Below, one piece after another: positions 6,336 through 24,800 of a stretch of DNA of 64,000 nt. Each line of letters starts with the position of its first letter. Position 1 is the stretch's first letter. The DNA lies in the IMG/VR virus record IMGVR_UViG_3300019458_000020, positions 1 through 64,000 of that record. One strand, written 5' to 3'. The notes under the pieces are model-generated. The model was not told the DNA's origin, searched no databases, and saw only the letters and a program-made list of their open reading frames with translations. The DNA is from a virus. Made by a program: the position numbers and the translations under genes.

Positions 6336-6415
6336 CCATCATACATATCATTTTAAATTCCGACCCACCAATAATAAAAATACGCTTGTATCATACAATT
6401 TCTATTTATTGCAAT
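6336..6415. promoter_or_regulatory. Divergent control region with candidate late element
   Basis: An 80-base gap between divergent genes. On the + strand it holds CTATTTATT at 6401-6409, seven bases before the ATG of the membrane protein; this matches the recurrent element seen before many genes here. Upstream lies a perfect dyad, TTGTAT-C-ATACAA (6386-6398), that could bind a regulator. No clear host-type -35/-10 pair is seen for the minus strand. Confidence 0.4.
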
Positions 6416-6763: not shown

Positions 6764-6764
6764 T

Positions 6765-7321: not shown

Positions 7322-7322
7322 A

Positions 7323-7574: not shown

Positions 7575-7655
7575 AGTTTTTCTTTCCATATACCGAAATA
7601 ATTTGTCTCGGAATATAATTTGTTATCTACTCTAAAAATCCCATATATTAATTTT

Positions 7656-8885: not shown

Positions 8886-8886
8886 A

Positions 8887-9738: not shown

Positions 9739-10598
9739 ACCAATCTCTCTAAGTAACTTTTATAATCACTTTTTGGTAGGCTTCCTACCGATTCCTTAAA
9801 TTGTTCTTTAGAAATGAAACCATTTACTAAACATGATTCTTCATAACATCCAATCATTATTCCCTGTCTTTCTTGGACAGATTGAATGTATGCTGATGCT
9901 TGAAATAATGTGGCTGGGGTACCGGCATCCAACCATGCTGTTCCTCTTTCCATAATTTTGGCTGTTAGTGTTCCTTCTTGCATATACATTTTTAACAAAT
10001 CCACTATTTCTAACTCCCCTCGTGTGGATGGCCTTAATGTATTAGCAAAATTAGAAGCCATTCCATCAAAATAATACAGACCCGGTATAGCATATTTACT
10101 CTTTGGTTGTATTGGTTTTTCTTCTAAAGAAATAACGTTACCCATTTTATCGAACTCAACTACACCATAAGCTCTTGGATTATTAACTTCGTATCCAAAC
10201 ACCGACGCTCCTTTTGGTGGAGTTATAACATATTTGTATTTATCAGGAGGTTGAATATTTCCATGAAATATGTTATCTCCGAGAATCAAACAGGAGGGTT
10301 TTTCTTCCAAGTAATCCTCAGCAATAATTAATGCCTGAGCTAATCCTTTTGGTTGGTCTTGAATCGCATATTGTATGCACAATCCCCATTTGTTTCCGTT
10401 TCCTAATAAGTTTTTGTAAAAATCAATGTATTGAGGGCTTGTTATCAATAATATCTCTTTTATTCCGTTATTGATTAAAGTGGTCAACGAATAATAGACC
10501 ATCGGTTTATCATATACAGGCAATAGTTGTTTATTAACCATTGTTGTCAATGGATATAATCGAGTTCCTGACCCACCTGATAAGATTATGCCTTTCAT
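9735..10598 (-). CDS. rmlA: Glucose-1-phosphate thymidylyltransferase
   Basis: A 287-residue nucleotidyltransferase. GGSGTRLYPLT (8-18) is the nucleotide-binding loop, NKQLLPVYDKP (22-32) carries the catalytic Lys, and LGDNIFHG (near 106-113) holds the metal-binding Asp. It joins dTTP and glucose-1-phosphate to make dTDP-glucose, the substrate of RmlB. Length and all motifs are normal for the family. It is the second gene of a minus-strand operon that goes on to the RmlD-like enzyme and the C-methyltransferase. Confidence 0.95.
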   Translation of the reverse strand: MKGIILSGGSGTRLYPLTTMVNKQLLPVYDKPMVYYSLTTLINNGIKEILLITSPQYIDFYKNLLGNGNKWGLCIQYAIQDQPKGLAQALIIAEDYLEEKPSCLILGDNIFHGNIQPPDKYKYVITPPKGASVFGYEVNNPRAYGVVEFDKMGNVISLEEKPIQPKSKYAIPGLYYFDGMASNFANTLRPSTRGELEIVDLLKMYMQEGTLTAKIMERGTAWLDAGTPATLFQASAYIQSVQERQGIMIGCYEESCLVNGFISKEQFKESVGSLPKSDYKSYLERLV

Positions 10599-10850
10599 TT
10601 ATTTACTTTGATGATTTTGATTTAAATAATTAACAATTTCATTTACCAATTGATTACATCCTTCTTCGGATTCTAATAAAGCCAGATCGCCGTCGGTGAG
10701 GCCAAATACAAACACCTTTCCGAGAGTCCACACAGCAAGTTCAACATCTGTATCCTTACATGTAATAGAATGACTTCCAGTAAATGATTCCCCCATTGCT
10801 TTCAGGGGAAACGTTTCATTAAGTAGTTTGAATAGATGTCTGGTTTTCAT
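10599..10850 (-). CDS. Hypothetical protein
   Basis: An 83-residue protein with no recognised domain, directly upstream of rmlA with no gap. The sequence alternates strands (ELAVWTLGKVFVFGLTDGDL) and ends in a polar helix. It overlaps the 3' end of the DruA-like gene by 32 bases, so it is probably expressed with it. No function can be given. Confidence 0.55.
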   Translation of the reverse strand: MKTRHLFKLLNETFPLKAMGESFTGSHSITCKDTDVELAVWTLGKVFVFGLTDGDLALLESEEGCNQLVNEIVNYLNQNHQSK

Positions 10851-11589
10851 TTTTGTTTAATCTTTCTTTCCAATTCCACACAAGAGGTTTTACAAACATT
10901 ATCTTTTGTGGTGATTTAGTTATTATGTATTCTTTTCCTTCGTCGTATCCATACTTCTCAAGAGCAGCTTTTGGGTCTTTTCTTGCTAATTCTCCCCTAG
11001 CTCCTGTTTCCTTTTTCCATAAACCCAATGGGCCTTTTCTAATAGAATTTCCTGATGTCTTTCCTACTTCTATCCAATTAGATGCACGGTATATCGCACC
11101 GTTTCTTAATTTCTCTCCATTATATTGTTCTACTCGTTCCGGTTGAACATAGGTTTCTATCATCAGTAACGGTTGATTATACTTCTCTTTCCATCTTTTT
11201 GCACCTTGTATGGATAATTGTTTTAAAACCATACTTCCGGTATTTTTTATGGTTATATTCTTTTGAATGAAACAACAACGAGAATTGTTTGCTAACATTC
11301 CTAAATTCTTGATTCTAGTTTCTTTATCCCATCCGATATAGTCATCTCGACAGGATATAGCAATAGTTGCAGAAGATAAGCCGATGGCTCCTATGTGATT
11401 ACCGGATTGAGTTTCGTAGATTAACCATCGTATGTTTCTGGTAGGGGAATCAGTATATTTTACGTAAGAATGGTATTTATCAATAGTTTCTCTGAATAAT
11501 TTGTTCTGTTCCGGAGAGGAACATTCTACTAAAAATACCGGCGTTTTTACAGTATCAGAGTAATCAAATATGGACAAAGAAAAAGACAT
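10819..11589 (-). CDS. DruA-like DUF4338 protein
   Basis: A 256-residue protein matching the DUF4338 pattern of the Druantia defence protein DruA. Seen directly: a WLIYE strand followed by HIGAIGLSSATIAISCRDDY and IGWDKETRIKNLGML (about residues 74-108), NNSRCCFI, then LLMIETYVQPER and AIYRASNWIEVGKTSGNS. These blocks occur in this order in DruA. DruA's molecular activity is not settled in my knowledge. A second divergent DUF4338 gene (13104-14312) and a Mom-like gene (20305-21078) lie nearby, so a role in DNA modification or counter-defence is plausible but inferred. Confidence 0.8.
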   Translation of the reverse strand: MSFSLSIFDYSDTVKTPVFLVECSSPEQNKLFRETIDKYHSYVKYTDSPTRNIRWLIYETQSGNHIGAIGLSSATIAISCRDDYIGWDKETRIKNLGMLANNSRCCFIQKNITIKNTGSMVLKQLSIQGAKRWKEKYNQPLLMIETYVQPERVEQYNGEKLRNGAIYRASNWIEVGKTSGNSIRKGPLGLWKKETGARGELARKDPKAALEKYGYDEGKEYIITKSPQKIMFVKPLVWNWKERLNKNENQTSIQTT

Positions 11590-11645
11590 ACATATAACCG
11601 TTTCTACGTTAATATGTATGTCCGAAAAACTAAAAACGTTTTATT

Positions 11646-12326
11646 TTAAACCGTAACTATTCCGCTATTTACTCTTAACATTGGGCATTTTGATAAACAA
11701 AGACGGGTGGTATCTATCATATATTGGTCTTTAGATATAGCTGCCAATTCAATAGAAGGGTCGCTCATACGAACATCTTCCCATTCTAATCTATAATCTG
11801 ATTTATATCTTACCAATGGGTCGTTCTTTGCTTCTTCTGCATTAGGGGCGTCATCAAATACTTGTTCTCCCATAAAACCTCTATGGAATTTAGAAAGGTG
11901 GAGAACCCAACCCTCCCAATTTTTATGAAGCCAATCTGCTTCATTTGGAAATCTTACATCCGAAACGAAAAATACCTTTTGAGATTTGGGGGAATCGTTC
12001 TGATGTTTTTTATATTCGGCCCTTAACACATCATCAACTTTCTTAATCCATATATCCGGGTCAACATTTTCTCTCATTCCACATCCTATCCACACCAAAC
12101 CCGGTCGAATGACTTTTTTCTCGTCAGTATTATCGGTAAAAGCCGAGATACCAAACAATTGTTGACAAACGGGGTCTGCTAATTTTTTTAATTCATCGGC
12201 AAAAGCAAGTTTTCTAACTTCATAACCTTCTTCCTGTAAAATTGATGATGCAATTTTACAAAAAGTATCCTTACCACATCTAGCATATCCAGAAATCCCT
12301 ATAACTGTAAAATTTTTGTTACTCAT
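11646..12326 (-). CDS. Deoxynucleoside monophosphate kinase
   Basis: A 226-residue P-loop kinase. The Walker A loop is GYARCGKDT (13-21), FADELKKLA (near 43-51) lies at the substrate side, and VFFVSDVRFPNEADW (near 119-133) contains the acidic and arginine residues typical of phage dNMP kinases such as T4 gene 1. It phosphorylates dNMPs to dNDPs to feed DNA synthesis. Neighbours include the clamp-loader subunit and, further on, the RNR. The exact nucleotide range cannot be told. Confidence 0.85.
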   Translation of the reverse strand: MSNKNFTVIGISGYARCGKDTFCKIASSILQEEGYEVRKLAFADELKKLADPVCQQLFGISAFTDNTDEKKVIRPGLVWIGCGMRENVDPDIWIKKVDDVLRAEYKKHQNDSPKSQKVFFVSDVRFPNEADWLHKNWEGWVLHLSKFHRGFMGEQVFDDAPNAEEAKNDPLVRYKSDYRLEWEDVRMSDPSIELAAISKDQYMIDTTRLCLSKCPMLRVNSGIVTV

Positions 12327-12338
12327 AATAATTTCCTT

Positions 12339-12803
12339 TCAACTTTCTCCATTTAATAAAACATTTTCTATTTCTTTGTCGTTTAATCCATATCCTTGGC
12401 AAATATTAACCAATTCTTCCATTCCGCCTTCAAGATTTATTAACATAAATACATATTCATTCGCACGATCGACAGAAATATCAAATTTTTTAGAAACTAA
12501 ATTCAATAATTCTTTGTTAAACTTGTCTTTTTTCGATTTTACCCACGGATAAAATTTTCTATCAGGTTGAACCAATGTAATTAACAGTGTATAGAATTGT
12601 TCCGATGGAATAATATCGAAATATTTGAATAACCATGCCATATCTTCGATGTAATTTGGATTCATGGATATTGCTCTCAGAAGCATGAAGTGAGAAAAAT
12701 TCTTCTTATCGAATTCTGATAAATTTTTATAATAGTTCGGGTCTTGGATTTCCTTAATTTGTTTGACGTGTTCAAACAAACTCACGGGCTTAATCTTTTC
12801 CAT
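12339..12803 (-). CDS. 62: Clamp-loader small subunit, T4 gp62-like
   Basis: A 154-residue helical protein. It matches the T4 gp62 pattern: an FSHFMLLRAISMNPNYIEDM helix where T4 has a YSKFMVENALSQFPE helix, then EQFYTLLITLVQPDRKFYPWVK aligning with the T4 NYLMAAVPRGKRYGKWAK region, and a final KKFDISVDRANEYVFML helix. gp62 works with gp44 to load the sliding clamp. The ATG at 12803 is preferred: GGAAGA sits seven bases upstream, while the ATG at 12866 has no ribosome site and lies inside the upstream gene. The match is by pattern only. Confidence 0.72.
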   Translation of the reverse strand: MEKIKPVSLFEHVKQIKEIQDPNYYKNLSEFDKKNFSHFMLLRAISMNPNYIEDMAWLFKYFDIIPSEQFYTLLITLVQPDRKFYPWVKSKKDKFNKELLNLVSKKFDISVDRANEYVFMLINLEGGMEELVNICQGYGLNDKEIENVLLNGES

Positions 12804-13059
12804 CGACTGGTCTTCCGAATCTTGACAATCTTTCGATTTTTTGGGCTCTTTGAGCTTTCTTTTCATACAATGTTAATTTTGATAACAATCCTGCTTGTGT
12901 AGATTGTAATGTATTTTGGTTTTTTGATAGTATAACGACATTCTCTTCCGATTTAGTTACTCTATTTTTTAACCAACGATATCTTTTTTCACAAAAAACT
13001 ATATATCCTGATACCAAAGAAACCACCAACAGTATAATTAGATATGTTATTATAGACAT
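12790..13059 (-). CDS. Membrane-anchored coiled-coil protein
   Basis: An 89-residue protein with one N-terminal membrane span (ITYLIILLVVSLVSGYIVF, about 3-21) followed by a basic stretch and a coiled coil. The topology, N-in with a long helical tail, would suit an inner-membrane anchor or an i-spanin-like protein, but there is no lipoprotein partner in sight. It overlaps the start of the gp62-like gene by 14 bases. Function unknown. Confidence 0.6.
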   Translation of the reverse strand: MSIITYLIILLVVSLVSGYIVFCEKRYRWLKNRVTKSEENVVILSKNQNTLQSTQAGLLSKLTLYEKKAQRAQKIERLSRFGRPVDGKD

Positions 13060-13103
13060 GATTATGATTATAATAGTTTATCGACAAACAATCTCAATAT
13101 TTT

Positions 13104-14312
13104 TTAACGTCCCACATCGTTAAAATATATCTGTCTAGCTTTTTCATAGGACATTCCACTCATATCTCCATAAAAGAGTTTCGTAGAGTTGAGCGGACCT
13201 GATGATTTTAATTTCTTATATCGTTCTATGGCTTTTGGTCGCCACCAATCCAATATGGCTTTTGTATCATACTGAAACAGTGGTTTCAAAATCAAATCCT
13301 TTTCTTCGATTTTATTTGATAGAAATTCTTTTGTGTTTTCGTAAAAACAAGAATAATATACACCCCGCTCAAATCCATGAACATAGTTAGATGATTTGAT
13401 TTGAGCAGAATCGAATATCATATTTATGACTCTTAATTTAGCTCCTGTAACAGGACCAGAAACATCTTCCTTCTGTGTCATCTTTTTCTCATATTCAGAT
13501 GATTTGTTTATCTTAATCCAATCATGCCACTTCTTATAAATTTTTTCTTCAGGTTGAATGGCAATCTTGCCGGCCGACGTTCCGCATTTATGCCACCATT
13601 TTAAACTATTATACATGGAGAATGAACCATAAAGGCTTGTCGTCGTCATTCCTACTAAAACAGAATCATACGTCCGTTTCCAAGCATCTCTGACTACTTT
13701 GGAAACTACCATTGCAGCGGATAACTTTCCTCCTAAGAATGGATAACCAAATGGTTGAGTAGAAACAATCGTTGTTCCAATTGCTGAATTAACTAATTTT
13801 CCTTCCTTGAGTTTATTATCCATTGACCATCCAATATAATTGTCTCTATCTCCAATGGAAATTACATCACTGGCAATTGAACATATTCCTAAGATTCTTG
13901 GATTATCAAGATTTCCATCATGGATCCAAAACTTCATAAATCTACCAGGTGCCTGATTAAATTCGGCAGAACTACAAAAATAACGAAGTGTGGTCCACAT
14001 TTTGTCATCTTCTTCGTTATCTATCAATTGAATTGTTGGAACCATGTTTTCAATTTCTTTTATGGTTCGTTCTTCATCCATGATATCTTCTGGTGCCCAT
14101 ATTTTTGCCTTGGCTACGCCAGCACGATTAAGGTGAGAATTCATAGCCTTTCTATCAGATATTTCTTCCCATTTTTTTCGAAAAGTAAATTCCTCAACAC
14201 TCAATGATTTAAGATAATCCATATTTTCTATCAACTTCCTTGTTTCTACATTAAGGTTAAATGAAGCTTGGGATGGTGCTGACTCAAAAAATATATCCGA
14301 TGTATCTGCCAT
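13104..14312 (-). CDS. Divergent DruA-like (DUF4338) protein
   Basis: A 402-residue protein. The core repeats the DUF4338 order: ILGICSIASDVISIGDRDNY then IGWSMDNKLKEGKLVNSAIG (about residues 145-184), where the Arg-Asp-x-Tyr-Ile-Gly-Trp block is the same as in the protein at 10819-11589. It continues with PFLGGKLSAAMVVSKVV, a GMTTTSLYGSFS block and KWWHKCGTSAGK. The N-terminal 100 residues are extra. It has its own sigma70-like promoter. A function in DNA modification or counter-defence is inferred from family and neighbours. Confidence 0.72.
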   Translation of the reverse strand: MADTSDIFFESAPSQASFNLNVETRKLIENMDYLKSLSVEEFTFRKKWEEISDRKAMNSHLNRAGVAKAKIWAPEDIMDEERTIKEIENMVPTIQLIDNEEDDKMWTTLRYFCSSAEFNQAPGRFMKFWIHDGNLDNPRILGICSIASDVISIGDRDNYIGWSMDNKLKEGKLVNSAIGTTIVSTQPFGYPFLGGKLSAAMVVSKVVRDAWKRTYDSVLVGMTTTSLYGSFSMYNSLKWWHKCGTSAGKIAIQPEEKIYKKWHDWIKINKSSEYEKKMTQKEDVSGPVTGAKLRVINMIFDSAQIKSSNYVHGFERGVYYSCFYENTKEFLSNKIEEKDLILKPLFQYDTKAILDWWRPKAIERYKKLKSSGPLNSTKLFYGDMSGMSYEKARQIYFNDVGR

Positions 14313-14317
14313 AAGGA

Positions 14318-14346
14318 ATTTTATCTCTATAAAAAGAGAAAGTCAA
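14318..14346 (-). promoter_or_regulatory. Sigma70-like promoter for the second DruA-like gene
   Basis: Read on the minus strand: TTGACT (14346-14341), 17 bases, TAAAAT (14323-14318). The -10 ends only a few bases from the annotated ATG at 14312, so the leader is extremely short or the true start is slightly further inside the gene. Box identity and 17-base spacing fit a host vegetative promoter. Confidence 0.5.
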
Positions 14347-14368
14347 CATATCATACTATTTATTATAT

Positions 14369-14659
14369 ATGCAATTCAAAAAAATAAATCCGGCGATGTT
14401 GGTGTATCATTACTTTCAAAGATCGCCCAGTGAATTTGTTTTATTTGATGATGAAATGGATTTACCTATTATTTACGGTAGTCGAAATCTCGTCGATTCT
14501 ACCGTTAGGAAACTTTCCTCTTCTGTAACGATTATTTATTACAAAAGAGATAATTCTGAGAAGGCCGCATTTAAGAGAAACGTTATATACAAAGGTAAAA
14601 AACCAGAACCTTCACTGAAGCCAACCATTGAAGTTGAAAGGGTAAAACCTAGCCCTTAA
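14369..14659 (+). CDS. Hypothetical protein
   Basis: A 96-residue basic protein with a folded-looking N-terminal half (MLVYHYFQRSPSEFVLFDDE) and a Lys/Pro-rich tail. It is preceded on its own strand by CTATTTATT (14353-14361), five bases before the ATG, which matches the candidate late element. It is a lone + strand gene among minus-strand ones and shares a TTAA stop with the convergent small gene. No recognised domain. Confidence 0.55.
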   Translation: MQFKKINPAMLVYHYFQRSPSEFVLFDDEMDLPIIYGSRNLVDSTVRKLSSSVTIIYYKRDNSEKAAFKRNVIYKGKKPEPSLKPTIEVERVKPSP

Positions 14660-14823
14660 AGTTCTAACAAAATATCGAATTCACACTTACTGAATCGTTC
14701 TTCATCCATGAAAGCTATTTCCGTATCGATTTCATCTTCATCAAGACTTACTTTGACGACCTTCTTGGTTTTTAGATCGAAAACCCCACATATATGAACC
14801 GGTATTTTTTTTGATTTCGGCAT
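14656..14823 (-). CDS. Small acidic protein (55 residues)
   Basis: An unlisted short gene running from ATG at 14823-14821 to TAA at 14658-14656. It encodes 55 residues starting MPKSKKIPVHICGVFDLKTK, followed by an acidic half rich in Asp and Glu. The coding look is good: a basic start, an amphipathic acidic end and no rare features. Its start codon is buried in a perfect 13-base-pair hairpin. It shares a TTAA stop with the convergent gene. Function unknown. Confidence 0.6.
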   Translation of the reverse strand: MPKSKKIPVHICGVFDLKTKKVVKVSLDEDEIDTEIAFMDEERFSKCEFDILLEL

Positions 14824-14833
14824 ATATGTGGGG
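14784..14833 (-). promoter_or_regulatory. Hairpin enclosing a start codon
   Basis: A perfect inverted repeat: CCCCACATATATG at 14784-14796 and CATATATGTGGGG at 14821-14833, with a 24-base loop. In the minus-strand transcript the first arm contains the ATG of the 55-residue gene and the second arm lies within its coding sequence. The stem would hide the start codon, so it is a candidate translation switch. A DNA-level binding site is an alternative. Confidence 0.6.
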
Positions 14834-14855
14834 AATTTTCGTTCACCGATGATTA

Positions 14856-15290
14856 TTACACGGTGACAGGCTTTGTGACGGAAACAACCGGCGTAGGAGT
14901 TGTTGGAGCCGGAGCCGGAGTCGAAACGGGGGCCACGGTCATAACATTGACGAGCTTCGTTTGGTCATCTAATTGAATTCCGGCAGACTTGGCAGAATCC
15001 AAAACCGATTGAAGAACGGGACGCATAGCGAACACCAAACAAGGACGGCCTTTGCCTGGATTGGTTGTGCCAATGACGCCGACCGTCTTTTCACTGTCGA
15101 TTGCCTTCTTTAGTCGAACACGAAGAGTAATCGGTACGAAATCAGGGTTTAAATTAAAAAGGTCTTTTATCGTAAAATAAACCGAAGCCGAAGGCCAGAC
15201 GACCGTGAGGTTCGTGTTATTTTTTCTTTGTGTCTTCTTCGTCGCGGGAGAAGACGTTACTGTGTTTGTTGTGTTTGTTGTATCATTCAT
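14856..15290 (-). CDS. Hypothetical protein with Pro/Thr-rich tail
   Basis: A 144-residue protein with a Thr/Asn-rich N-terminus, a compact middle (about 28-115; YFTIKDLFNLNPDFVPITLR, then VGVIGTTNPGKGRPCLVF) and a Pro/Ala/Thr/Val-rich tail. The middle could be a small DNA- or RNA-binding fold, but no family was recognised. GC content is higher than that of its neighbours. It has the best sigma70-like promoter of the window and an AGGAGG site about 25 bases before the ATG, which is unusually far. Confidence 0.65.
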   Translation of the reverse strand: MNDTTNTTNTVTSSPATKKTQRKNNTNLTVVWPSASVYFTIKDLFNLNPDFVPITLRVRLKKAIDSEKTVGVIGTTNPGKGRPCLVFAMRPVLQSVLDSAKSAGIQLDDQTKLVNVMTVAPVSTPAPAPTTPTPVVSVTKPVTV

Positions 15291-15320
15291 AATGTGTTTT
15301 TATACTTTTTCTGTATTCCT

Positions 15321-15368
15321 CCTGTGGAATTACAGGTTTACTTTAACGTAAACAAATAAAATTGTCAA
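15321..15368 (-). promoter_or_regulatory. Strong sigma70-like promoter with nested dyads
   Basis: On the minus strand: TTGACA (15368-15363), 17 bases, TAAAGT (15345-15340). The -10 lies inside a dyad GTTTAC-N6-GTAAAC (15336-15353), a likely operator. Just downstream a second dyad, CCTGT-N6-ACAGG (15321-15336), abuts an AGGAGG ribosome site. This suggests repression at the DNA level and perhaps control of translation of the gene ending at 14856. Confidence 0.65.
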
Positions 15369-15378
15369 CCCATTTTTT

Positions 15379-17649
15379 TCATACCTTCTTTAAAAAAAGT
15401 CCGTTCATCGTTTTTGCAATCTGCCCAACCTGCGTAACATCAATCATACTAGCGTCTTTTCCATACATTGAACGGAATTGTTTTTCCGTTGTTTGGGTCG
15501 CCATTCCTAAAAATCCACCGAAAGCATTTACACTTTTATAATCCGATTCTATAAAATAACTCAGTATTTTAATACCATGTGACCGCATAATATTAACCTG
15601 ACGTTTGGTGTGTTTCACAGCTTCTTCACCACCATAAGAAAATCCTTTTCCACCGCCGCGGTCATAAAAACAATAACACGGTTCACCGTCTGAAATGTTT
15701 ACGAAGTAATGGTCTTCTCCATTGGATCGTTTATTTATTACACAATCCGTCATGATTGCTTCAAAGGCCAATCCTTCAGGAGTTGCACCACCAGCTTTCA
15801 AAAATGGAAAAATCTGGCGTATCTTACTTGGTTTATCAACTTCTGAATCATATATGATAACAATATATGGAAGACTTGCCTTATCCATATCATGTGTTGT
15901 ACGAAGAGAAACCGACACATGTAAATTTTGAATCATCGAACATGCTTGACACAATGCTGCCAACAGTGTCATCGTAGGCAACCATTTTGTACTACAATCC
16001 ATCGAACCACTGGCATCCACCGAAATATGAAGTTTGGCTGTATTAAACTGGTCCATCTGAATCTTATAAAAGAGATTTTCTACTCCTGCACCAAACTCCG
16101 CTATAATTCTTTTTTCTAATTTACCGGAAGAGCGTCTAATATATTTAATGATGTTGGTTTCATTTCTGATTTGAAGTTTTCTTCCCAATCTTTTACCCAT
16201 AGCAATACCCTTCATTATTGCTTCCAAATTTTCTTTATTAGGTTCAATTCCACCTAATGCTATTCCGGGAGATTCTTCATGTGTAGAAAGAGGAAAGATT
16301 TCCTTTCCAGAAAACAATAACGATTTTGTCAGATTTTTTACAACGATACAATCGACTTTTCTTATGACTCCTTCAGAATTTTCTGGACTAAAATGAGCAT
16401 GAGAAATATGAATTCCTGATTGTTCAACGATTTCTAAAATCTTAGCTCTTTCGGCCGTCAAGGTTTCCTTTACCGAATCAAAATCATTCATTAACATTTC
16501 TTTCGTCTGTTCAAAATGTTTTTGAATTTTATCTCGTTGTGATGGGGTGAATTCACTTAAATCACCACGAGGGTCATCTTCCGTAGTCTTACCATCTTCA
16601 ATTTTTTCGGCTTGAGTAGGCATGCCTCCCAATACGTCCTCAATTGATTCAGATTCCGACTCTGCCAACTTTTCTTTTTCAGATGATGGTTCACCGGTTT
16701 TTTCTTCTTTATTTTCGGAATGTTCTCCGGATTTGCTTATTTGTGTCGCGGACGGATCATCTTTATTCCCATCAGGTTCATTAGATGGTTCATTAGAATT
16801 ACCACTCAACACATTTTTTATCTGCTTAATTGTAGAATTGGCTCCACCACCGTTATTGGCTTCTTTTTTCTTTTTATCGATTGCATCTAATATCATTTCG
16901 ACAATTTTGAATGAGAGAGTCATTCTATCCGATGTAGTCTTTTCTCTTAAAATGGTTGATATATCGAATAAAGCATTTATCTTTCTTAATTCCGGCAAGG
17001 CATCTAAATCAGTCGCGGGATTGGTCAAATATATGATTCTATATTCGTAGGATTCCAAATTATTGAGACGATATCCCTTCGATTTAAGCGTTGCACTTAT
17101 TGCTTTGGAATTCCAAAGCTTATCATACAATGCTTTATAATATCCTCGGTATCCGGGACATGTTTTGAAGGCATAGGCATCAATATATCTGTCTTCGACA
17201 ACATTGAACATCATTTTACAAAAGTGAGCTACTTCTTCTTTTGTGACTCGCTTTTCTTTGCCCTTCTTATACAGTTCCGATGGAATCTTATTCCAAATAG
17301 ACCTAAATATATTAAAATCCGTTTTAACGATGTGCATTGATTCGTGTAATGCTAATCCGACACACCAATCAAAGTCGGATTTTTTTCTAACGGAAGCTGA
17401 CAAAAAAACAGTTTTTCCATCGGTTGCTCCGGTACTTCCGGCAGGTAAATATTTAACAGGTATGGATGGGTTTGTAGCAATGGATACAAAGTTAGAAATG
17501 ACTTTTCGATACGATGCCAATAAAATTAAATCCATTGTAAATAACTTACCCTCAGTTGTGGTTTCTTTATCATGATTTATATAATCATCGATAGACGTGC
17601 CGTCCAACCAGAAATCGGAATAACACGTATCTTTATCTACAACATCCAT
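15379..17649 (-). CDS. Zincin-like and VWA-domain protein, partner of MoxR ATPase
   Basis: A 756-residue protein in three parts. Residues 95-160 hold LALHESMHIV with the zinc-protease motif HESMH (102-106) and FNVVEDRYID (148-157), whose Glu is a likely third ligand. Residues 265-360 are a low-complexity acidic linker. Residues 540-756 form a von Willebrand A domain with the metal site DASGSM (545-550). The layout resembles CobT-like partners of CobS/MoxR ATPases, and the ATPase gene lies three bases upstream. The pair probably remodels or inserts metal into a target, unknown here. Confidence 0.82.
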   Translation of the reverse strand: MDVVDKDTCYSDFWLDGTSIDDYINHDKETTTEGKLFTMDLILLASYRKVISNFVSIATNPSIPVKYLPAGSTGATDGKTVFLSASVRKKSDFDWCVGLALHESMHIVKTDFNIFRSIWNKIPSELYKKGKEKRVTKEEVAHFCKMMFNVVEDRYIDAYAFKTCPGYRGYYKALYDKLWNSKAISATLKSKGYRLNNLESYEYRIIYLTNPATDLDALPELRKINALFDISTILREKTTSDRMTLSFKIVEMILDAIDKKKKEANNGGGANSTIKQIKNVLSGNSNEPSNEPDGNKDDPSATQISKSGEHSENKEEKTGEPSSEKEKLAESESESIEDVLGGMPTQAEKIEDGKTTEDDPRGDLSEFTPSQRDKIQKHFEQTKEMLMNDFDSVKETLTAERAKILEIVEQSGIHISHAHFSPENSEGVIRKVDCIVVKNLTKSLLFSGKEIFPLSTHEESPGIALGGIEPNKENLEAIMKGIAMGKRLGRKLQIRNETNIIKYIRRSSGKLEKRIIAEFGAGVENLFYKIQMDQFNTAKLHISVDASGSMDCSTKWLPTMTLLAALCQACSMIQNLHVSVSLRTTHDMDKASLPYIVIIYDSEVDKPSKIRQIFPFLKAGGATPEGLAFEAIMTDCVINKRSNGEDHYFVNISDGEPCYCFYDRGGGKGFSYGGEEAVKHTKRQVNIMRSHGIKILSYFIESDYKSVNAFGGFLGMATQTTEKQFRSMYGKDASMIDVTQVGQIAKTMNGLFLKKV

Positions 17650-17652
17650 AAT

Positions 17653-18627
17653 TTAGAATTTATGGGTTTTTAACCCTCCCTTTTTTCCCTTGATAGGATT
17701 AGGTGCGGCAGAAGCATTGGTATCAATATATTTCTGAACCAATTGTTTGATATAAAGTCTTTCGGATTCCGTTCCGCCATCTTTATCAAACATTGGATAG
17801 ATGGATAATTCTGCTAACTCTTTAAGAGAAAATCCGTCAATAACCATCTGAGCCATTTCAATAACAATACCGGTGGGAATGAATCGGGAAATAGGAGCGT
17901 CGTCTAATTTAGCCTGTTTCTTTGTATCATGTGAAATATTACAAATATCATTGAAGTAGTCCTTGTTTTCTTCAAAATCATTTTCAAATAAAATTTTCAA
18001 TAACTTCATCTCTCCGTCAAAATCCAACGGTTCCATTTCAACGATGACCGGAAATCGACGAGACGTGGCTTCATCGATGACTTTCGTTGCGGTATATTGT
18101 AATCCTATGTTTGTAGTAGAAACAAACGTAATACTGGTAGGAATCTTGATGATTGAGGATTCTACTGATTCATCCAACCGTAAATATCTTTGTGTAGAAT
18201 CCAAGACCGGCATCAATATATTCCAAGCATCATGATGTCCACGAGAAAGTTCATCTAGTAGAATTACTGCATTCTCAGTTTGTATTGCTCTAACAAATTC
18301 CGATGGATTAAATATCGTTCCTTGCTCTTTTTTGAATGTGGTATTTCCAATAAGTGTTGCCCGGGCATCTTGTGTAGAACCAAGATTGAAATAGAAGAAG
18401 GGTCTATTCAATGCTTTTGCGACGGATTGAGCGGCTTTGGTTTTTCCGCATCTTGTCGGTCCTACTATTAAAACGTTTCGACCTCGTAACACTGCCCATA
18501 CCAAACCCTTCCATTGTGTTTCGTCTATAATCAAATCCTTTGGAATTAAAGACTTGGAATCAGTAAGCATTTGCGTAACATCTACGTTTGACATATCGTT
18601 GAGAATGGAGTTTTTCATTACCTCCAT
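17653..18627 (-). CDS. MoxR/CobS-type AAA+ ATPase
   Basis: A 324-residue AAA+ protein. The Walker A loop is VGPTRCGKTKAAQ (near 57-69), Walker B is AVILLDELSRG (near 120-130), and SITFVSTTNIG is sensor 1. Its length and the Asp-Glu-Leu-Ser-Arg-Gly block place it with MoxR/CobS proteins, which act as hexameric motors with a VWA partner; that partner is the next gene. A GGAGG lies just before a second ATG (18618), so the start could be three codons later. Confidence 0.87.
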   Translation of the reverse strand: MEVMKNSILNDMSNVDVTQMLTDSKSLIPKDLIIDETQWKGLVWAVLRGRNVLIVGPTRCGKTKAAQSVAKALNRPFFYFNLGSTQDARATLIGNTTFKKEQGTIFNPSEFVRAIQTENAVILLDELSRGHHDAWNILMPVLDSTQRYLRLDESVESSIIKIPTSITFVSTTNIGLQYTATKVIDEATSRRFPVIVEMEPLDFDGEMKLLKILFENDFEENKDYFNDICNISHDTKKQAKLDDAPISRFIPTGIVIEMAQMVIDGFSLKELAELSIYPMFDKDGGTESERLYIKQLVQKYIDTNASAAPNPIKGKKGGLKTHKF

Positions 18628-18656
18628 ACTATTCCATACTTTTTATACAATGTCAA
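18628..18656 (-). promoter_or_regulatory. Possible sigma70-like promoter for the MoxR operon
   Basis: Minus strand: TTGACA (18656-18651), 17 bases, AATAGT (18633-18628), placed right after a terminator hairpin. The -35 is perfect; the -10 is weak and lies against the ATG, so the start point or start codon may be slightly downstream. Confidence 0.35.
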
Positions 18657-18659
18657 GAA

Positions 18660-18688
18660 AGAAAAAACGTGTTGTGAACCAACACGTT
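18660..18688 (-). terminator. Rho-independent terminator
   Basis: Hairpin AACGTGTTG (18666-18674), loop of five, CAACACGTT (18680-18688). On the minus strand the stem is followed by a run of T. It ends the transcript of the three helix-tag genes and separates them from the MoxR/VWA operon. Confidence 0.8.
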
Positions 18689-18705
18689 CTATATTAGAAA
18701 GCGAA

Positions 18706-19209
18706 TTAAGCTACCGGTGCAGTAGGGGCCGGTGGTGTTGCGGCTGCCGGTGCTGGTGTAGGTTCACCCGTAGGAATGGTATCGGATTCGTAACGAGCCA
18801 TTCTCTCAAGAATATTTTCAAGTTTTTCATATTCAGGAAACTCTGAAAATCTCGATTGAATTCCTTCTCCATTGTTTGCATTTTTTACTGTTCTAACAAA
18901 AATAACAGGCATCGTATGAGACGGAGAAAAATAAACACTTTCTACTACATCAATATCATTATCCGTAATATAATGTCTCGTGTATGCATGATGATTGGCA
19001 TCCCATTTGAATCCGAATAATTCCAATGAATCTAAGTGGAGTTGTTCTGTAGCCTGCTGACCATCGACGATTTGGGGGACAGGGAATTTCATTTTCATAA
19101 ATCCCAATTCCTTCAACGTCTCAATTTGGTCTTCGGTAAAAGCATCCATTCCTTTCAATACTTCACGAATGGTTTCTTTTATTAATGCTTTAATCTCATG
19201 TTTTTTCAT
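18706..19209 (-). CDS. Hypothetical protein with N-terminal helix tag
   Basis: A 167-residue protein. It starts with an amphipathic helix, MKKHEIKALIKETIREVLKG, that recurs in altered form at the start of the next two genes upstream. A folded middle follows (LELFGFKWDANHHAYTRHYI; VESVYFSPSHTMPVIFVR), and the end is a Pro/Ala tail. It is the last of a three-gene set and is followed by a terminator. The helix could be a packaging or localisation tag. Function unknown. Confidence 0.6.
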   Translation of the reverse strand: MKKHEIKALIKETIREVLKGMDAFTEDQIETLKELGFMKMKFPVPQIVDGQQATEQLHLDSLELFGFKWDANHHAYTRHYITDNDIDVVESVYFSPSHTMPVIFVRTVKNANNGEGIQSRFSEFPEYEKLENILERMARYESDTIPTGEPTPAPAAATPPAPTAPVA

Positions 19210-19210
19210 A

Positions 19211-19477
19211 TTATTTCTTGAATCCTAATCCGGCCACGTCACCTATTCCAGCTATGAATTTTCCGATCTTATCACTCCAATTAGCATTTCGTGCAGACCT
19301 CCATCCGTGTTTAAATCCAGCTTTAAATTCTTCAGACATGTGTGAATAGTCTCCGGCTTCTCCCTTTAGATGGTCGTTCATTCCTTGTCTAAATCCTTTT
19401 TTGTATTCGTTGGATTTTCCAGATAAATCAGTAGTAATTATCTCTTTAATGACTTGTTTAAGTTCATCCCTCTTCAT
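19211..19477 (-). CDS. Small protein with helix tag and Gly-Phe-x2-Gly repeats
   Basis: An 88-residue protein. After a tag helix (MKRDELKQVIKEIITTDLSG) come two related units, EYKKGFRQGMNDHLKG and EFKAGFKHGWRSAR, followed by a hydrophobic end. The repeated aromatic-Gly units recall ribosome modulation factor-like sequences, which also end in a Gly-Trp-Arg block, but the match is faint. It lies between two other tag genes, one and four bases away. Confidence 0.55.
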   Translation of the reverse strand: MKRDELKQVIKEIITTDLSGKSNEYKKGFRQGMNDHLKGEAGDYSHMSEEFKAGFKHGWRSARNANWSDKIGKFIAGIGDVAGLGFKK

Positions 19478-19481
19478 ATCA

Positions 19482-20270
19482 TTATTTTAATTTAGGTGTT
19501 TTCTTAGGATTTACTACCAATTTTTTATCAACCTTATGTTTCAGAGGCTTGACTTTGTTCTCAGTTTCCTTGAAATCTCTTTGGTGCTTGATATCCTTTT
19601 CATCTACCGTTTTCATTGGTTGATTTGGCTGGTCTTCATCCTTTTTGACTGCCTTCTCATTGTAATCTTTTTCATCGTTTTTGGTGTCGCCGACTTCTTT
19701 TCTTTTTGGCTTATTATGTTGTGGCAAATCACTCTTGTCTGATTTATCTTCCAAATGGTTCATCGCCTTTTCTCTTGCTTGGTCCACCTTCGTATCCTCT
19801 ACATCTTGGAAATTAGCTTTTACAAAATTCTTTACTTGTTCCCACGTCAAGGCTATGGCACGAACTCGGTCATCGAGATTTACCATTGCTTCAATGTTGA
19901 ACATGTCTTCGGCAGTTTGAGAAATACGAACACGGAGTAGCGGCTTTGCATCTACATTTAAATCGTTATGGTCATCCCAATAAACCAAAAAATCTTTATC
20001 AATTTCTTTTACAATTTTACTAAGTTGATCCATCATTTCGGCTCTAGTTGCATCCAATCGTTCGTTACCCGTTTTCTTATATCCCTTATCGATGGTTTCT
20101 TTTTCTTCTTTGGTTGGTTCGGGTTTTGTTACGTTGGTTATTTCAGATAAAACCTTCTTGACAATTTTTCGTAACGACTCCTTGACAACTTGTTTTTTAG
20201 ACGTGGCTCTCTCGGTTAGGACTTCATCCCAAGATTCTCTTACAAGTTTTTTTAATTGGTCTTTATTCAT
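19482..20270 (-). CDS. Hypothetical protein with helix tag and charged tail
   Basis: A 262-residue protein. It opens with the tag-like helix MNKDQLKKLVRESWDEVLTE and a second similar helix (QVVKESLRKIVKKVLSEI, about 27-44). The middle has a small folded-looking unit (FLVYWDDHNDLNVDAKPLLR), and the last 90 residues are a highly charged Lys/Asp tail. A candidate late element lies 18 bases before the ATG. It leads the three-gene set that ends in the terminator at 18660-18688. Confidence 0.6.
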   Translation of the reverse strand: MNKDQLKKLVRESWDEVLTERATSKKQVVKESLRKIVKKVLSEITNVTKPEPTKEEKETIDKGYKKTGNERLDATRAEMMDQLSKIVKEIDKDFLVYWDDHNDLNVDAKPLLRVRISQTAEDMFNIEAMVNLDDRVRAIALTWEQVKNFVKANFQDVEDTKVDQAREKAMNHLEDKSDKSDLPQHNKPKRKEVGDTKNDEKDYNEKAVKKDEDQPNQPMKTVDEKDIKHQRDFKETENKVKPLKHKVDKKLVVNPKKTPKLK

Positions 20271-20288
20271 ATTTATCTCCGATATGAG

Positions 20289-20296
20289 TATAAATA
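20289..20296 (-). promoter_or_regulatory. Candidate late element (ATATTTATA)
   Basis: The minus strand reads ATATTTATA in the direction of the gene, 18 bases before the ATG at 20270. One of a set of twelve such sites. Confidence 0.45.
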
Positions 20297-20304
20297 TTAC
20301 AAAG

Positions 20305-21078
20305 TCAACTAAAAAACGGATTTTCGGTCTTATTATCGACTTTGATTTCCTCTATTTGTTCCTTATAGATAGTATCTTTTGGATAGGGTAAAAATGGGTG
20401 TTTTAGATTGGCTAATATTTTCTTCTTTTCGACCTTATTTCCCAATAAATACACATATCGATGTTTGGTGGATTCTTTTTTCCTCCAGAACGTTTTACCG
20501 ATGGTCTTTTTCAAATGTTCTACGTTATGAGAACCATAAGTGGAAAAGGCGGTTCTTGAATGCATCCATTTATACGGTGGCCCGATTTCTGAAATAGAAT
20601 AATTAGGCATTAAAGCTAATGAAGAATTCCCTTGATAGTAAAATCCTGAAGCCTGATAGATGGTTCCTCTGTGACCTTGTTCATTATCAGCATAACTTAT
20701 TACGGCTTTAACGTTAGGAAGATGCTTTGTCAACATCGATAAAGTCTTTGATATACAATAACTTTCTATATTTTTGCCGTATCCATCATAAATGACTAAT
20801 CGGGTTAATTCCGTAACTTGTTCCAAGGTTATGAGTGGAGATATAGATTCGGCTGCACTTCTTCCAACCGGGCCGCCGTAGATGACTGTTCCGATTAATT
20901 TTTCCTCATTGCCTTCAATGAATTGGGAGGGAGTTTTTGTATTAATGAAGATACCAAAAGCCACATCACATAGGGTCCATTTGTGACTATAATGATTTTT
21001 TTCGACAAATGATTTACCTATATCTTTAGGAATTACCCGTATTGACACGAGTGATGTATCGACATAACCTTCTTCCAT
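20305..21078 (-). CDS. Mom-like DNA modification protein
   Basis: A 257-residue GNAT-like protein. FVEKNHYSHKW (near 25-35) matches the opening His-Tyr-Ser motif of phage Mu Mom-family proteins, LTRLVIYDGYGKNIESYCIS (near 111-130) matches the core, and AVISYADNEQGHRGTIYQAS (near 144-163) is the second conserved block. Mom modifies adenines to N6-carbamoylmethyladenine and protects phage DNA from restriction. The family also includes other phage acyl-transfer proteins, so the exact chemistry is not certain. Two DruA-like genes lie within 10 kb. Confidence 0.8.
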   Translation of the reverse strand: MEEGYVDTSLVSIRVIPKDIGKSFVEKNHYSHKWTLCDVAFGIFINTKTPSQFIEGNEEKLIGTVIYGGPVGRSAAESISPLITLEQVTELTRLVIYDGYGKNIESYCISKTLSMLTKHLPNVKAVISYADNEQGHRGTIYQASGFYYQGNSSLALMPNYSISEIGPPYKWMHSRTAFSTYGSHNVEHLKKTIGKTFWRKKESTKHRYVYLLGNKVEKKKILANLKHPFLPYPKDTIYKEQIEEIKVDNKTENPFFS

Positions 21079-21833: not shown

Positions 21834-24800
21834 TTAAGATTTTGGTTTGATTTCGCAAACATCATTGCTGCAAAACCTTTCTACGTCCGCTTCTTCGTGT
21901 TTTATTCCTTTAAACCTCACAGGTTTTAATTTAGAGGATAGTTCATCGTAAGTTTCAATAGAAATGGTTTCGTAGGGCATCTGTTCGTATGCACCCTTTT
22001 CTGTAATAGGCAAAAATGAAATACCTTTTAGTTGATATTGATAGAAATTTAAAAGATGTTTGATTTGGTTCGCTTCATCCTTTCTAAAAGAAATGGTACA
22101 TGAAACTTGATTGTCTGCCCAATATCTTTGTAAGAACGCTGCCAGTGCAGCTTGTTCCCATATACTTACATCTTTAACTGGTCTTAGATTATCACCAATC
22201 TTGACAGGAATTTCTACAACAACAGTGGTATCTTCCGACCCCTTACAATCTTCGATGTGATATCCGGCTTCTTTTAATGGTCCAACTAAATCACTATATT
22301 TTGAAAGTCGCATTCTCCTTATGTAACAAACATTTTCTGGAAAATGAACGCCGGGGGTCGCACCGGCGACCAAACTCACCGTTCCACTTGGTTTGATAGA
22401 AGTCTTCTTTATACTTTTTGGTATGGCTAACCAATCGGAATATACTTCATCATAATACTCAATTTTTTTGTATCCCTTTTCGCACCATGTTTTAAATTCG
22501 TCTATTCCACGGTTAGCTAAAAATTGAACTATACCACTCATACTACAACCTATTCTTCTATTTCTTAACATTACTCTATTAGTTTCCGGCCAATGAGTTT
22601 GACCCAACGTCACTGTCTTGGCATACAAATATGCATATTTAAGTGTAACGAGAAAATCATCAAGATTTTCATGATTATTTGGGAATGTTTCAACTAAGCA
22701 GCATAATTCATAGCTTTCCAATGATTGTTCGAGACAATTGATTATTATAATCCCATCTACTTGATTATCAGAAACTTGTGTAATAATTGAATAATTATAA
22801 TTATCATCTACTGTAATGTTATATACATCTTCTTTTTCTGATAAAAATGTCACCGATTTAACTCGATGATTGTATCCTTTTTCTTTTTCAATTAATTCTT
22901 TGTAGCTTTTTAGAACGTAAGGATTTTCGGTTTTAAGAGATTCTGGATTTCTTATTCTAAAAGAAATTTTTCTATTTCGGCATTCTCTTTCCCATTCTTT
23001 CTTTAAAGGATTCCTATCCAAAGATTGTTTCAAGTCTTTGAATATCATAATTTGTTGATGTAATGTGTCTCTTTGTTTATTCTCAAAGTGGATCTTCTGC
23101 CCCTCTTTTCTAAATTTGATTTGTCCTTCGTGTTTATTTTGACATGAATGTGAACAAAATACAACATGGCGACTTCCCCAAGATACTATCATTTCATCAT
23201 TACATGTAATACATTTCTTCTTTGCAAACATTCGTTCGTTTACCCAAACTGTTTCTAAATCTGTCTTTTTTGATTGTTCTATATAGTATTCTTTATCCCA
23301 TTCTTTTTTATTTTTTTTCATTTTTGATGAATATAGTTCTCTACATTCGTCAGTATGAGAATTGGACAATCTTTTTAAATACTCTACATCTTTGCATCTT
23401 TCTTTCGTTTTTTCTCCAATTAATTTTTTCGATTCTTCCGTATGTTGTCTTCCAAACATAGGATTGTTTTCTCCTTGATTATCGTGGTCAGCATGAAATT
23501 TACAATGATCCTTAAATGTCATTAATTCTAGGTTATCTATAGAATTATTTAATCCATTATAATCTTTGTGATGAACAACTATTCCACCTTTACACCACCC
23601 ATTTGATTTCGATTCATTATATAGTTCGTTCCATTTTTCTGGATTGTGAAATTTAACAATTAAACGATGTTCCATTTCTCTTTTCCTTTTTACATCATTT
23701 GTATCCATGCTTACAATATAATATTTATTAGGATTATCCTTAAACATCTTTTCTTTTCTTTTTTGAAATCTTGGAAGAGAGTCTCCAATTTTTAAATCTT
23801 TAGCACGACACGTTTCTCCATTTAATAAAATCATTTTGTGGTCTGGAGTGACTCTTAATTTTCCTCCTTCTTCAAATTCTATTTCTACCAATTCTGCATT
23901 TTCTCTAGTCTTTCTTGGATTTCTTCCCCACTTTATTTCTACCATTCCACTTTTATTCATAGAATATACTGCAACATCATTTCCTTCTTCTGCTAATTCT
24001 TTTATAGAAACTGCATTTCTTCCGTCTGCAACTGCAATGAGAGTGTCTCCGGTTAAACAAGGATTACCCCCTTCAACCCGATGGTCTTTGTGGTCCATTC
24101 CATTATTCATCCTTGAATATCCTTTCATATTTTCCAACCAAGCATATCCCGGCTCACCATTTACTTTAGTTCTCTCGGCAGCATTGGAATAATCCATTCC
24201 CAAATCACAAAAGATAGAATTGTTTGATGTCCATCCATATTCAGACCGATGTGGATTCTTTTTATAATTTTTTAAATCCAAATATTCTTCTGAGTTGTAG
24301 TCACCAAATACAATTTCAGCCGTTCTTCTTACATTTCCAGCAACAACACACTTTCCAATAAGATTCATAACATCAACAATAGTAGTTGTTGTTATTAGGT
24401 GTCCTACATTTTTATCAAAAATTACACGAAGGGTTTTATGAAGTTCAATCAAGGGTTGAGAACCGGATGAAACACCACCGAACCCTTTAATTGGTTCGCC
24501 CGCGGCTCTTATTAATGAATAATCGAAATGAACTTCCTTGGTTTCAAGTAGATAGGATTCGATTAAAAGTTTTGTTGATTCGACCCAACCCTCTCTCGTA
24601 TCAGCAATTTTATAAATATTGTCGGGTGATGGGCTTGGTTTCCCTACTTTAATTTTCCCTGACCCTTTACAATCAAATCCAACACCAACACCCAACATTG
24701 ACATATCCATCAAAAAACAGAATGATTTTGACACATCCTCTTTTATGGTTGAGGTCGAAACGAATGCACAGTTATTTAGTGCGGCATATAAATGTCTTTC

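What the first reader, a model, noticed from the sequence alone, without database searches (positions are those of the whole stretch)
10819..21078. Two DruA-like proteins and a Mom-like protein in one 10-kb phage segment
The genes at 10819-11589 and 13104-14312 both carry the DUF4338 core (Arg-Asp-x-Tyr-Ile-Gly-Trp) of Druantia DruA, a bacterial anti-phage protein, and 20305-21078 is Mom-like. Phage copies of a defence protein beside a DNA-modification enzyme suggest a base-modification or counter-defence system that may be undescribed.
Basis: partly seen in the sequence, partly recalled or inferred. Interest (0 to 1): 0.8.

Follow-up and report, generated by a model that had tools for sequence, protein, structure and literature searches.

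The report
Phage DruA and Mom relatives cluster
A large phage carries, in one conserved replication gene cluster, two relatives of the bacterial defence protein DruA and one relative of the DNA-modifying enzyme Mom, and sequence and predicted structure suggest that DruA and Mom belong to one enzyme superfamily, so that the unknown job of DruA can be tested.

Summary
Observation confirmed. 10819-11589 (D1) and 13104-14312 (D2) match Pfam DruA (88.7 and 70.2 bits, cut-off 27); 20305-21078 matches Pfam Mom (147.7 bits, cut-off 27.1). The window lies in a 250,813-base T4-like phage record. D1 and D2 are predicted GNAT-fold proteins whose best-scoring solved structure is Mu Mom: Z 14.8 for D1 (next row 13.3), Z 9.2 for D2 (tied with other GNATs). 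57 of 76 D1-type DruA-family proteins match the Mom-like PHROG at E<=0.01, and one phage protein matches home-made DruA and Mom profiles over the same residues, E about 1e-21 each. D1 keeps His, Ser, Tyr and Lys that line up with Mom's invariant residues; D2 has Gly for the Ser (32 of 33). The order D2 - clamp-loader subunit - dNMP kinase - D1 recurs: the clamp-loader gene lies upstream of D1 in 42 of 42 phage loci. Most likely D1 and Mom are DNA- or nucleotide-modifying acyl-transfer enzymes against restriction, and D2 a diverged partner. No chemistry is shown. DruA-like cyanophage proteins and the GNAT assignment of DUF4338 are in print; my searches found no paper linking DruA to Mom.

The parts
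10819..11589 (-). D1: 256-aa DruA/DUF4338 protein of the standalone type, predicted GNAT/Mom fold; has H40, S119, Y167, K229
   Evidence: PF14236 E 5.1e-25; PHROG 1384 Mom-like E 3.1e-5; AF2 pLDDT 84.9, pTM 0.81; 8bv8 Mu Mom best, Z 14.8, 184 residues
13104..14312 (-). D2: 402-aa DruA protein of the Druantia-DruA branch (GGK loop in place of the Ser motif), with extra N- and C-terminal helices
   Evidence: PF14236 E 2.2e-19; phrog_19197 E 3.3e-26; AF2 pLDDT 87.0, pTM 0.83; 8bv8 top at Z 9.2, 184 residues, tied within 1 Z
20305..21078 (-). Mom-like DNA modification protein, 257 aa
   Evidence: PF25680 E 4.6e-43; PHROG 1384 E 1.6e-46; PDB 8bv8 Mu Mom by phmmer E 2.8e-6
11646..12326 (-). deoxynucleoside monophosphate kinase, between D1 and the clamp-loader gene
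   Evidence: phrog_139 E 1.2e-24
12339..12866 (-). clamp-loader small subunit (gp62-like), between D2 and D1
   Evidence: phrog_225 E 1.8e-11; upstream of D1 in 42 of 42 phage loci
12790..13059 (-). 89-aa ORF in the D2-gp62 gap; in some relatives this gap holds UvdE or an Apyc1-like gene
14856..15290 (-). 144-aa ORF of unknown function, conserved beside D2
   Evidence: no family; found on the D2 side in many D1 loci
15379..17649 (-). 756-aa protein that I call CobT/vWA-like by eye (no Pfam or PHROG match)
   Evidence: no family; conserved near D2; a gene annotated 'putative peptidase' lies near the D2 relative in phage Mosig
17653..18627 (-). MoxR/CobS-like AAA ATPase
   Evidence: PF07728 E 6.6e-16; phrog_249 E 8.5e-18
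19482..20270 (-). 262-aa ORF of unknown function next to mom
   Evidence: no family above cut-off; next to Mom in L005, L007, L259, L287

Best explanation
D1, D2 and the Mom-like protein are three divergent members of one GNAT-fold superfamily (supported by profiles, an intermediate sequence and predicted folds). D1 and Mom keep the same set of putative active-site residues and most likely both transfer a small acyl or carbamoylmethyl-type group to a nucleobase of phage DNA, or of the nucleotide pool that feeds it, around replication, making phage DNA resistant to restriction (inferred). D2 belongs to the branch of Druantia DruA; it has a GGK loop where Mom and D1 have the Ser motif but keeps the Tyr; it most likely is a DNA- or cofactor-binding partner near the clamp loader, or does different chemistry (inferred, weak). 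My rough probabilities: shared superfamily 0.9; D1 acts on DNA or nucleotides 0.5; D2 as a partner 0.3.
For: (1) 57 of 76 D1/DUF4338 proteins match the Mom-like PHROG at E<=0.01, best 6.1e-8; 14 of 76 match Pfam Mom, best 8.1e-6, and 76 of 76 match Pfam DruA. (2) Against 4612 ORFs from the loci then held, a home-made D1/DUF4338 profile picks out, outside its own family and D2, 58 of 90 Mom proteins at E<=0.1 but only 4 other ORFs up to E<=1: the intermediate, two plasmid DruA proteins and an unexamined 109-residue ORF. (3) The L304 phage protein matches that profile (i-E 8.6e-22, residues 334-519) and the Mom profile (3e-21, residues 395-538) over the same stretch; Pfam Mom 1.7e-23. (4) D1's top VIA row is Mu Mom 8bv8, Z 14.8, rmsd 5.1 over 184 residues; next row Z 13.3, rmsd 2.8 over 133; D2's top row is also 8bv8. 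(5) Aligned residues: H40, R104, G164, Y167, K229 76/76 and S119 75/76 in D1/DUF4338, against H29, R93, G138, Y141, K205 and S106, each 18/18, in Mom (pairing). (6) Synteny: clamp-loader gene upstream of D1 in 42/42 loci, dNMP kinase in 36/42, D2 in 35/42, all same strand; Mom over cut-off in 14 of 21 D1-selected and 8 of 8 D2-selected records.
Against: No enzymatic or virion-DNA data. Pairwise hhalign of D1/DUF4338 with Mom is colinear but weak (E 8e-4, probability 24%). Much of the sequence signal sits in the GxxYxAxxW motif and the C-terminal block; for one bacterial member the PHROG match is only 22 residues. The reverse search is weak: the Mom profile finds 2 of 129 D1/DUF4338 proteins at E<=0.01 and 21 at E<=1, with 8 other ORFs at E<=1. 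The D2 profile finds 0 of 90 Mom proteins at E<=1, so D2 joins only through D1 and fold. Pfam DruA does not list the L304 intermediate at E<=0.01. Foldseek's own 50 listed rows for D1 are ordinary GNAT-type enzymes, without 8bv8. Mom's invariant Asp (D131, 18/18) is Gln in 24 of 29 phage D1. D1 occurs without a second DruA or Mom (G017, G018); two D2-carrying named phages lack Mom (2 of 2); of 7 Mom-selected records only 3 have DruA over the cut-off: not an obligate three-part system.
Confidence: 0.5

Rival explanations
1. D1 and D2 are protein or small-molecule acetyltransferases (ordinary GNAT function), for example acting on replisome or host proteins, and only the Mom-like gene modifies DNA.
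For: The GNAT fold is shared with many protein and drug acetyltransferases; Foldseek's listed rows for D1 are such enzymes (best E 5.8e-5). PMC10853773 predicts that GNAT domains (annotated DUF4338) fused to DndF may target proteins (passages seen).
Against: Mu Mom stands above the ordinary GNATs for D1 in the VIA re-alignment, and Mom motifs are shared.
Confidence: 0.2
2. D1 and D2 serve replication or repair as non-modifying accessory factors of the phage replisome.
For: Conserved position around clamp-loader gp62 and dNMP kinase; a UvdE repair gene lies in the same gap in L265; D2 lacks the Mom-type Ser.
Against: D1 keeps the Mom-type residues listed except the Asp.
Confidence: 0.15
3. D2 (and D1) are counter-defence decoys that poison host Druantia by mimicking DruA.
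For: D2 is closer than D1 to plasmid DruA-type proteins; an Apyc1-like anti-defence gene lies next to D2 in L271.
Against: D2 relatives lie in the replication region of phages of quite different hosts (Synechococcus, Pelagibacter). Whether the hosts carry Druantia was not examined.
Confidence: 0.12
4. The phage carries a Druantia-like defence against competing phages.
For: Two DruA-family proteins in one phage.
Against: No PF09369 (MZB) helicase domain in the 250,813-base record (0 of 1; the same search rings in 8 of 14 control genomes). DruB, DruC and DruD were not searched for.
Confidence: 0.03

Closest known systems
Druantia type I protein DruA (PF14236, formerly DUF4338)
   Same: Family membership of D1 and D2 over the Pfam cut-off; D2 shares the GGK loop and a TTS...Y stretch with plasmid DruA of P. 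putida; a GGK pattern is found in 5 of 7 plasmid DruA-type proteins.
   Different: No MZB helicase domain in the phage record; the genes lie with clamp loader and dNMP kinase; D1 is of the standalone DUF4338 type.
Phage Mu Mom (PF25680; PDB 8bv8, S124A)
   Same: Third gene is a clear homologue; D1 and D2 models match 8bv8 best in the VIA re-alignment; D1 keeps His, Ser, Tyr and Lys.
   Different: D1 is not listed for Pfam Mom; its Asp equivalent is mostly Gln; D1 and D2 carry an RDxxIGW motif not seen in the four Mom sequences.
DruA-like proteins of Synechococcus phages (phrog_19197; PMC12774648)
   Same: D2 is homologous (31 phage records, all cyano-, pelagi- or marine phages); in S-SCSM2R the gene also directly precedes a clamp-loader small-subunit gene and was annotated 'methylcarbamoylase mom' by the depositor.
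   Different: No Mom, and only one DruA match each, in the two named phage records searched (Mosig and S-SCSM2R).
Standalone bacterial DUF4338 proteins
   Same: Cellular relatives of D1, 27-36% identical to it in A2.
   Different: They have an N-terminal region that D1 lacks, and D1 has an insert of about 30 residues after the GxxYxAxxW motif.

Membership tests
DruA family (Pfam PF14236) | Score over the curated cut-off of 27 bits | tested here: met
   D1 88.7 bits, D2 70.2 bits
Mom family (Pfam PF25680), for 20305-21078 | Score over the curated cut-off of 27.1 bits | tested here: met
   147.7 bits
Mom family (Pfam PF25680), for D1 and D2 | Score over the curated cut-off of 27.1 bits | tested here: not met
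   Neither is listed for Mom at E<=1; so I call D1 related to Mom, not a Mom
Mom-type enzyme, for D1 and the Mom-like gene | Serine equivalent to the one mutated in Mu Mom S124A | tested here: met
   Mom S106 18/18 and D1/DUF4338 S119 75/76; equivalence to Mu Ser124 is inferred from the Ala in 8bv8 at that column
Mom-type enzyme, for D2 | Serine equivalent to the one mutated in Mu Mom S124A | tested here: not met
   G at that column in 32 of 33, S in 1 of 33 (column pairing)
Mom-type enzyme | N6-methylcarbamoyl-type adenine in DNA | not testable with these tools
   Needs nucleoside LC-MS of virion DNA
GNAT superfamily, for D1 | GNAT fold | tested here: met
   Predicted model: Foldseek 28 PDB matches with E<=0.001, VIA Z 14.8 to 8bv8 and Z 12-13 to many GNATs
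GNAT superfamily, for D2 | GNAT fold | tested here: inconclusive
   VIA rows with Z 7.6-9.2 nearly all GNAT domains, but Foldseek has no match at E<=0.001
Druantia type I defence system | DruA with a DruE (DUF1998/MZB) helicase in one operon | tested here: not met
   PF09369: 0 matches in the held 250,813-base record; neighbours of D1 and D2 are replication genes. The record may be incomplete

The most novel reading that the evidence does not exclude
DruA proteins as a whole are a branch of the Mom superfamily: the standalone branch (D1/DUF4338) are undescribed nucleobase acyl-transfer enzymes, the Druantia branch (D2, DruA) are catalytically altered Mom relatives that read or install base modifications, and T4-like phages run a D1-D2-Mom cluster that hypermodifies DNA at the replication fork.
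Probability: 0.3. Interest if true: 0.85.

Novelty: new variant of a known kind. Interest (0 to 1): 0.58.

Why it matters
In the passages I saw of papers on Druantia-related systems no function of DruA is given. Placing DruA in one superfamily with Mom gives a concrete test (nucleoside LC-MS, point mutants of the conserved His, Ser and Tyr). If D1 modifies DNA, a family found in many bacteria and phages would be a new source of DNA base chemistry and anti-restriction.

Tried and rejected
Rejected: chance resemblance to DruA (Pfam and PADLOC agree); a recent duplication as the source of both DruA-like genes (D1 sides with DUF4338, D2 with plasmid DruA-type proteins); an obligate three-gene system; a thymidylate-synthase-family base pathway in the same record (PF00303, 0 of 1). 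My reading by eye of the first 75 residues of 207 ORFs from the rest of the record showed no other obvious base-modification enzyme; this is not a profile search.

Mended on re-checking: I had first written that D2 lacks Mom's His. The window's own D2 has no His there, but one column from the aligned position 22 of 33 A4 members have His (and 78 of 81 in the larger D2 set), which may be the equivalent; so only the loss of the Ser is claimed for D2. The odds given for D2 were already low and are unchanged.

Led nowhere: D1 in 50,697 phage records by tblastn (no match); D1 and D2 by phmmer against PDB sequences (D2 none, D1 one chance-level match); hhalign of narrow families (D1 against Mom probability 10.6%, D2 against Mom 0.5%; D1 against D2 97.9%). 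NCBIfam gave nothing for the three. Literature: Druantia+DruA+Mom 0 papers, Druantia+GNAT 0, DruA+acetyltransferase 1 (Phold), DUF4338 3 papers (passages seen of one, PMC10853773, whose text has no 'Mom'; the other two listed only). A search for momylation/Mom-like terms found 24 papers, 15 listed, none opened beyond PMC7824862. The Mu Mom enzymology paper (10.1093/nar/gkaa319) and a 2013 base-modification survey (10.1093/nar/gkt573) are not held, so a DruA-Mom link could be in print there or in other papers not held.

Rows dropped: of 80 Mom loci, 55 went into the first family file and 17 plus the window into A3. Of 80 bacterial DUF4338 loci (themselves the best 80 of 540), 76 gave an ORF and I took 47 into A2, leaving out others for length or to limit size, not by a fixed rule. 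Of 30 distinct phage D1 ORFs, a 10-aa piece of the window's own record and L266 were left out. The 42 loci are those with a D1 match of at least 40% identity over more than 150 residues; a shorter one (L288) was dropped, and several of the 39 contigs are near-duplicates. The handles were 40 loci that I chose mostly for long contigs; they fell in 38 records. In one search, 76 loci counted as D2-only: gp62 lay within 2.5 kb downstream in 48 of 72 with at least 1.5 kb of flank; Mom in 10 of 17 with 8 kb upstream.
Full report
What is there. Pfam assigns D1 (10819-11589) and D2 (13104-14312) to DruA and 20305-21078 to Mom, all well over the cut-offs. The window is 64,000 bases of a 250,813-base virus record. 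Its genes (UvsX-like recombinase, DnaB-like helicase, gp32-like SSB, clamp loader, tail sheath, baseplate hub, tape measure) make it a T4-like large contractile-tailed phage.

D1 is related to Mom, not only to DruA. D1 alone matches PHROG 1384 'Mom-like DNA modification protein' at residues 162-247 (E 3.1e-5). I gathered relatives: phage D1 genes, D2 genes, Mom genes and bacterial DUF4338 genes. In alignment A2 (29 phage D1 and 47 bacterial DUF4338) all 76 match Pfam DruA, 57 of 76 match PHROG 1384 at E<=0.01 (best 6.1e-8), and 14 of 76 match Pfam Mom (best 8.1e-6). These members are related, so the counts are not independent.

Background control. I searched 4612 distinct stop-to-stop ORFs (at least 100 aa) from the 315 sequences then held. 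The A2 profile finds 129 own-family ORFs (E<1e-20) and 79 of 82 D2 proteins at E<=0.01. Next come Mom proteins: 12 of 90 at E<=0.01, 58 at E<=0.1, 66 at E<=1. Only 4 other ORFs reach E<=1: the L304 intermediate, two plasmid DruA proteins and an unexamined 109-residue ORF of L289. The Mom profile run the other way is weaker: 2 of 129 D1/DUF4338 at E<=0.01, 5 at E<=0.1, 21 at E<=1, against 8 others at E<=1. The D2 profile finds 100 of 129 D1/DUF4338 at E<=0.01 and no Mom at E<=1. So D1/DUF4338 is the bridge; D2 has no direct sequence link to Mom.

An intermediate. The protein of L304 (506 aa as L304:4990-6507), which came up at the bottom of the D1 search (E 3e-4) and was in none of the profiles, matches A2 (i-E 8.6e-22, residues 334-519 of the stop-to-stop ORF) and Mom (3e-21, residues 395-538) over the same stretch. 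It has a DruA-like RFCILP..VKNLAS segment followed by a Mom-like SFVDPEQGHIGTIYKASNW segment (aligned). Pfam calls it Mom (1.7e-23) and also GNAT (22.4 bits, cut-off 20.7), but does not list DruA at E<=0.01.

Fold. AlphaFold2 of D1 on A2 gives pLDDT 84.9, pTM 0.81. Foldseek's top PDB rows are GNATs (8bv8 is not among the 50 rows shown). In the VIA re-alignment the top row is 8bv8, Mu Mom S124A, Z 14.8, 184 of 222 residues, rmsd 5.1; next is Z 13.3 over 133 residues, rmsd 2.8. D2 on A4 (33 sequences) gives pLDDT 87.0, pTM 0.83. Its top VIA row is again 8bv8, Z 9.2 over 184 residues, tied with GNATs at Z 8.6; Foldseek had nothing at E<=0.001 for D2.

Residues. hhalign of A2 with A3 is colinear (28-236 with 17-212, E 8e-4, probability 24%) and, with the multiple alignment, pairs D1 H40, R104, N116, S119, G164, Y167 and K229 with Mom H29, R93, N103, S106, G138, Y141 and K205. 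Conservation in D1/DUF4338: H40, R104, G164, Y167, K229 76/76, S119 75/76, N116 38/76; in Mom all seven 18/18. The phmmer alignment with 8bv8 puts an Ala at the column of S106; with the entry's title 'inactive mutant S124A' I infer that this is Mu Ser124 (the construct offset is inferred and the length of Mu Mom recalled). D2 has G at the Ser column (32 of 33, S in 1), and keeps Y234 and K196 33/33. At the His, the window's D2 has none, but 22 of 33 A4 members have a His one column away, which could be the equivalent. Seven plasmid DruA-type proteins all score higher with the D2 profile than with A2; a pattern for the GGK loop is found in 5 of 7. DEAD/DEAH helicase genes lie close by in P. putida, Nitrosococcus, Meiothermus, Leisingera and Haloplanus, and none is annotated in the stretch shown for Roseivivax or Halobaculum.

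Neighbourhood. In 42 phage loci with a D1 (39 contigs, some near-duplicates; window excluded), a gp62-like gene lies upstream of D1 in 42, dNMP kinase in 36 and D2 in 35, always on the same strand and in the same order. D1 identity runs from 46 to 84%. At record level (38 records: 36 IMG/VR and two named phage genomes), Mom is over the cut-off in 29 of 38 and DruA in 34 of 38. The sets are biased by how they were found: of 21 D1-selected records 14 have Mom over the cut-off; of 8 D2-selected records all 8; of 7 Mom-selected records 3 have DruA over the cut-off and one a weak match; the two named phages (Mosig, S-SCSM2R) have DruA but no Mom. G017 and G018 (123,688 and 96,167 bases) have D1 but neither Mom nor a second DruA match. 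In Synechococcus phage S-SCSM2R the D2 relative directly precedes a clamp-loader small-subunit gene and is annotated 'methylcarbamoylase mom'; the depositor's annotation thus already saw a Mom resemblance. Among marine D2-only loci gp62 is within 2.5 kb downstream in 48 of 72.

Interpretation. Sequence, intermediate and fold together make a shared DruA-Mom superfamily likely. D1 keeps the Mom residues and sits with the dNMP kinase and clamp loader; with Mom usually in the same record, DNA or nucleotide modification against restriction is the best guess, but no chemistry is shown, and Mom's invariant Asp is Gln in 24 of 29 phage D1. D2 lacks the Ser, so its role is open; partner, altered enzyme and decoy all remain possible.

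What is known. DUF4338 has been called a GNAT domain (PMC10853773, passages). Mom is a GNAT (PMC7824862, passages). DruA-like proteins in six Synechococcus phages were found by structure (PMC12774648, passages). Searches combining Druantia or DruA with Mom, GNAT or acetyltransferase found no paper making the DruA-Mom link, in an open-access library only. The three-gene cluster and the intermediate are, as far as these searches go, undescribed.

Noticed in passing
L271:3324-4175 (similar ORFs by eye in L275, L283): In relatives the D2-gp62 gap holds a metallo-beta-lactamase-fold protein matching Anti-Pycsar Apyc1 (PF23023, 113.6 bits, cut-off 50): an anti-defence gene beside D2. Only the L271 protein was scanned; ORFs.
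   Followed up: partly
L265:3213-4133 (similar ORFs by eye in L277, L279): In other relatives the same gap region holds a UvdE UV-endonuclease (PF03851, E 1.9e-36). Only the L265 protein was scanned; ORFs.
   Followed up: partly
L304:4990-6507: 506-aa phage protein whose C-terminal part is intermediate between Mom and DruA; its N-terminal part looks HNH/zinc-finger-like by eye.
   Followed up: partly
G030:C1:58698-59925 and G036:C1:93364-94442: A Mom match lies directly beside a D1-type DruA match; the G036 DruA match is below the cut-off.
   Followed up: no
G024 to G029: Two Mom matches lie close together in six of the eight D2-selected records (G024-G029), a tandem pair of Mom genes.
   Followed up: no
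21834-25133: Ribonucleotide reductase ORF with an insert matching HNH endonuclease families, probably an intein by eye.
   Followed up: no
167-10598: Glycosyltransferases and a methyltransferase (167-5195) and an RmlA/B/D-like nucleotide-sugar set with a C-methyltransferase (5170-10598) next to D1.
   Followed up: no
15379-18627: MoxR/CobS-like ATPase with a large partner beside D2; phage Mosig has an AAA protein and a large 'peptidase' near its D2 relative.
   Followed up: no
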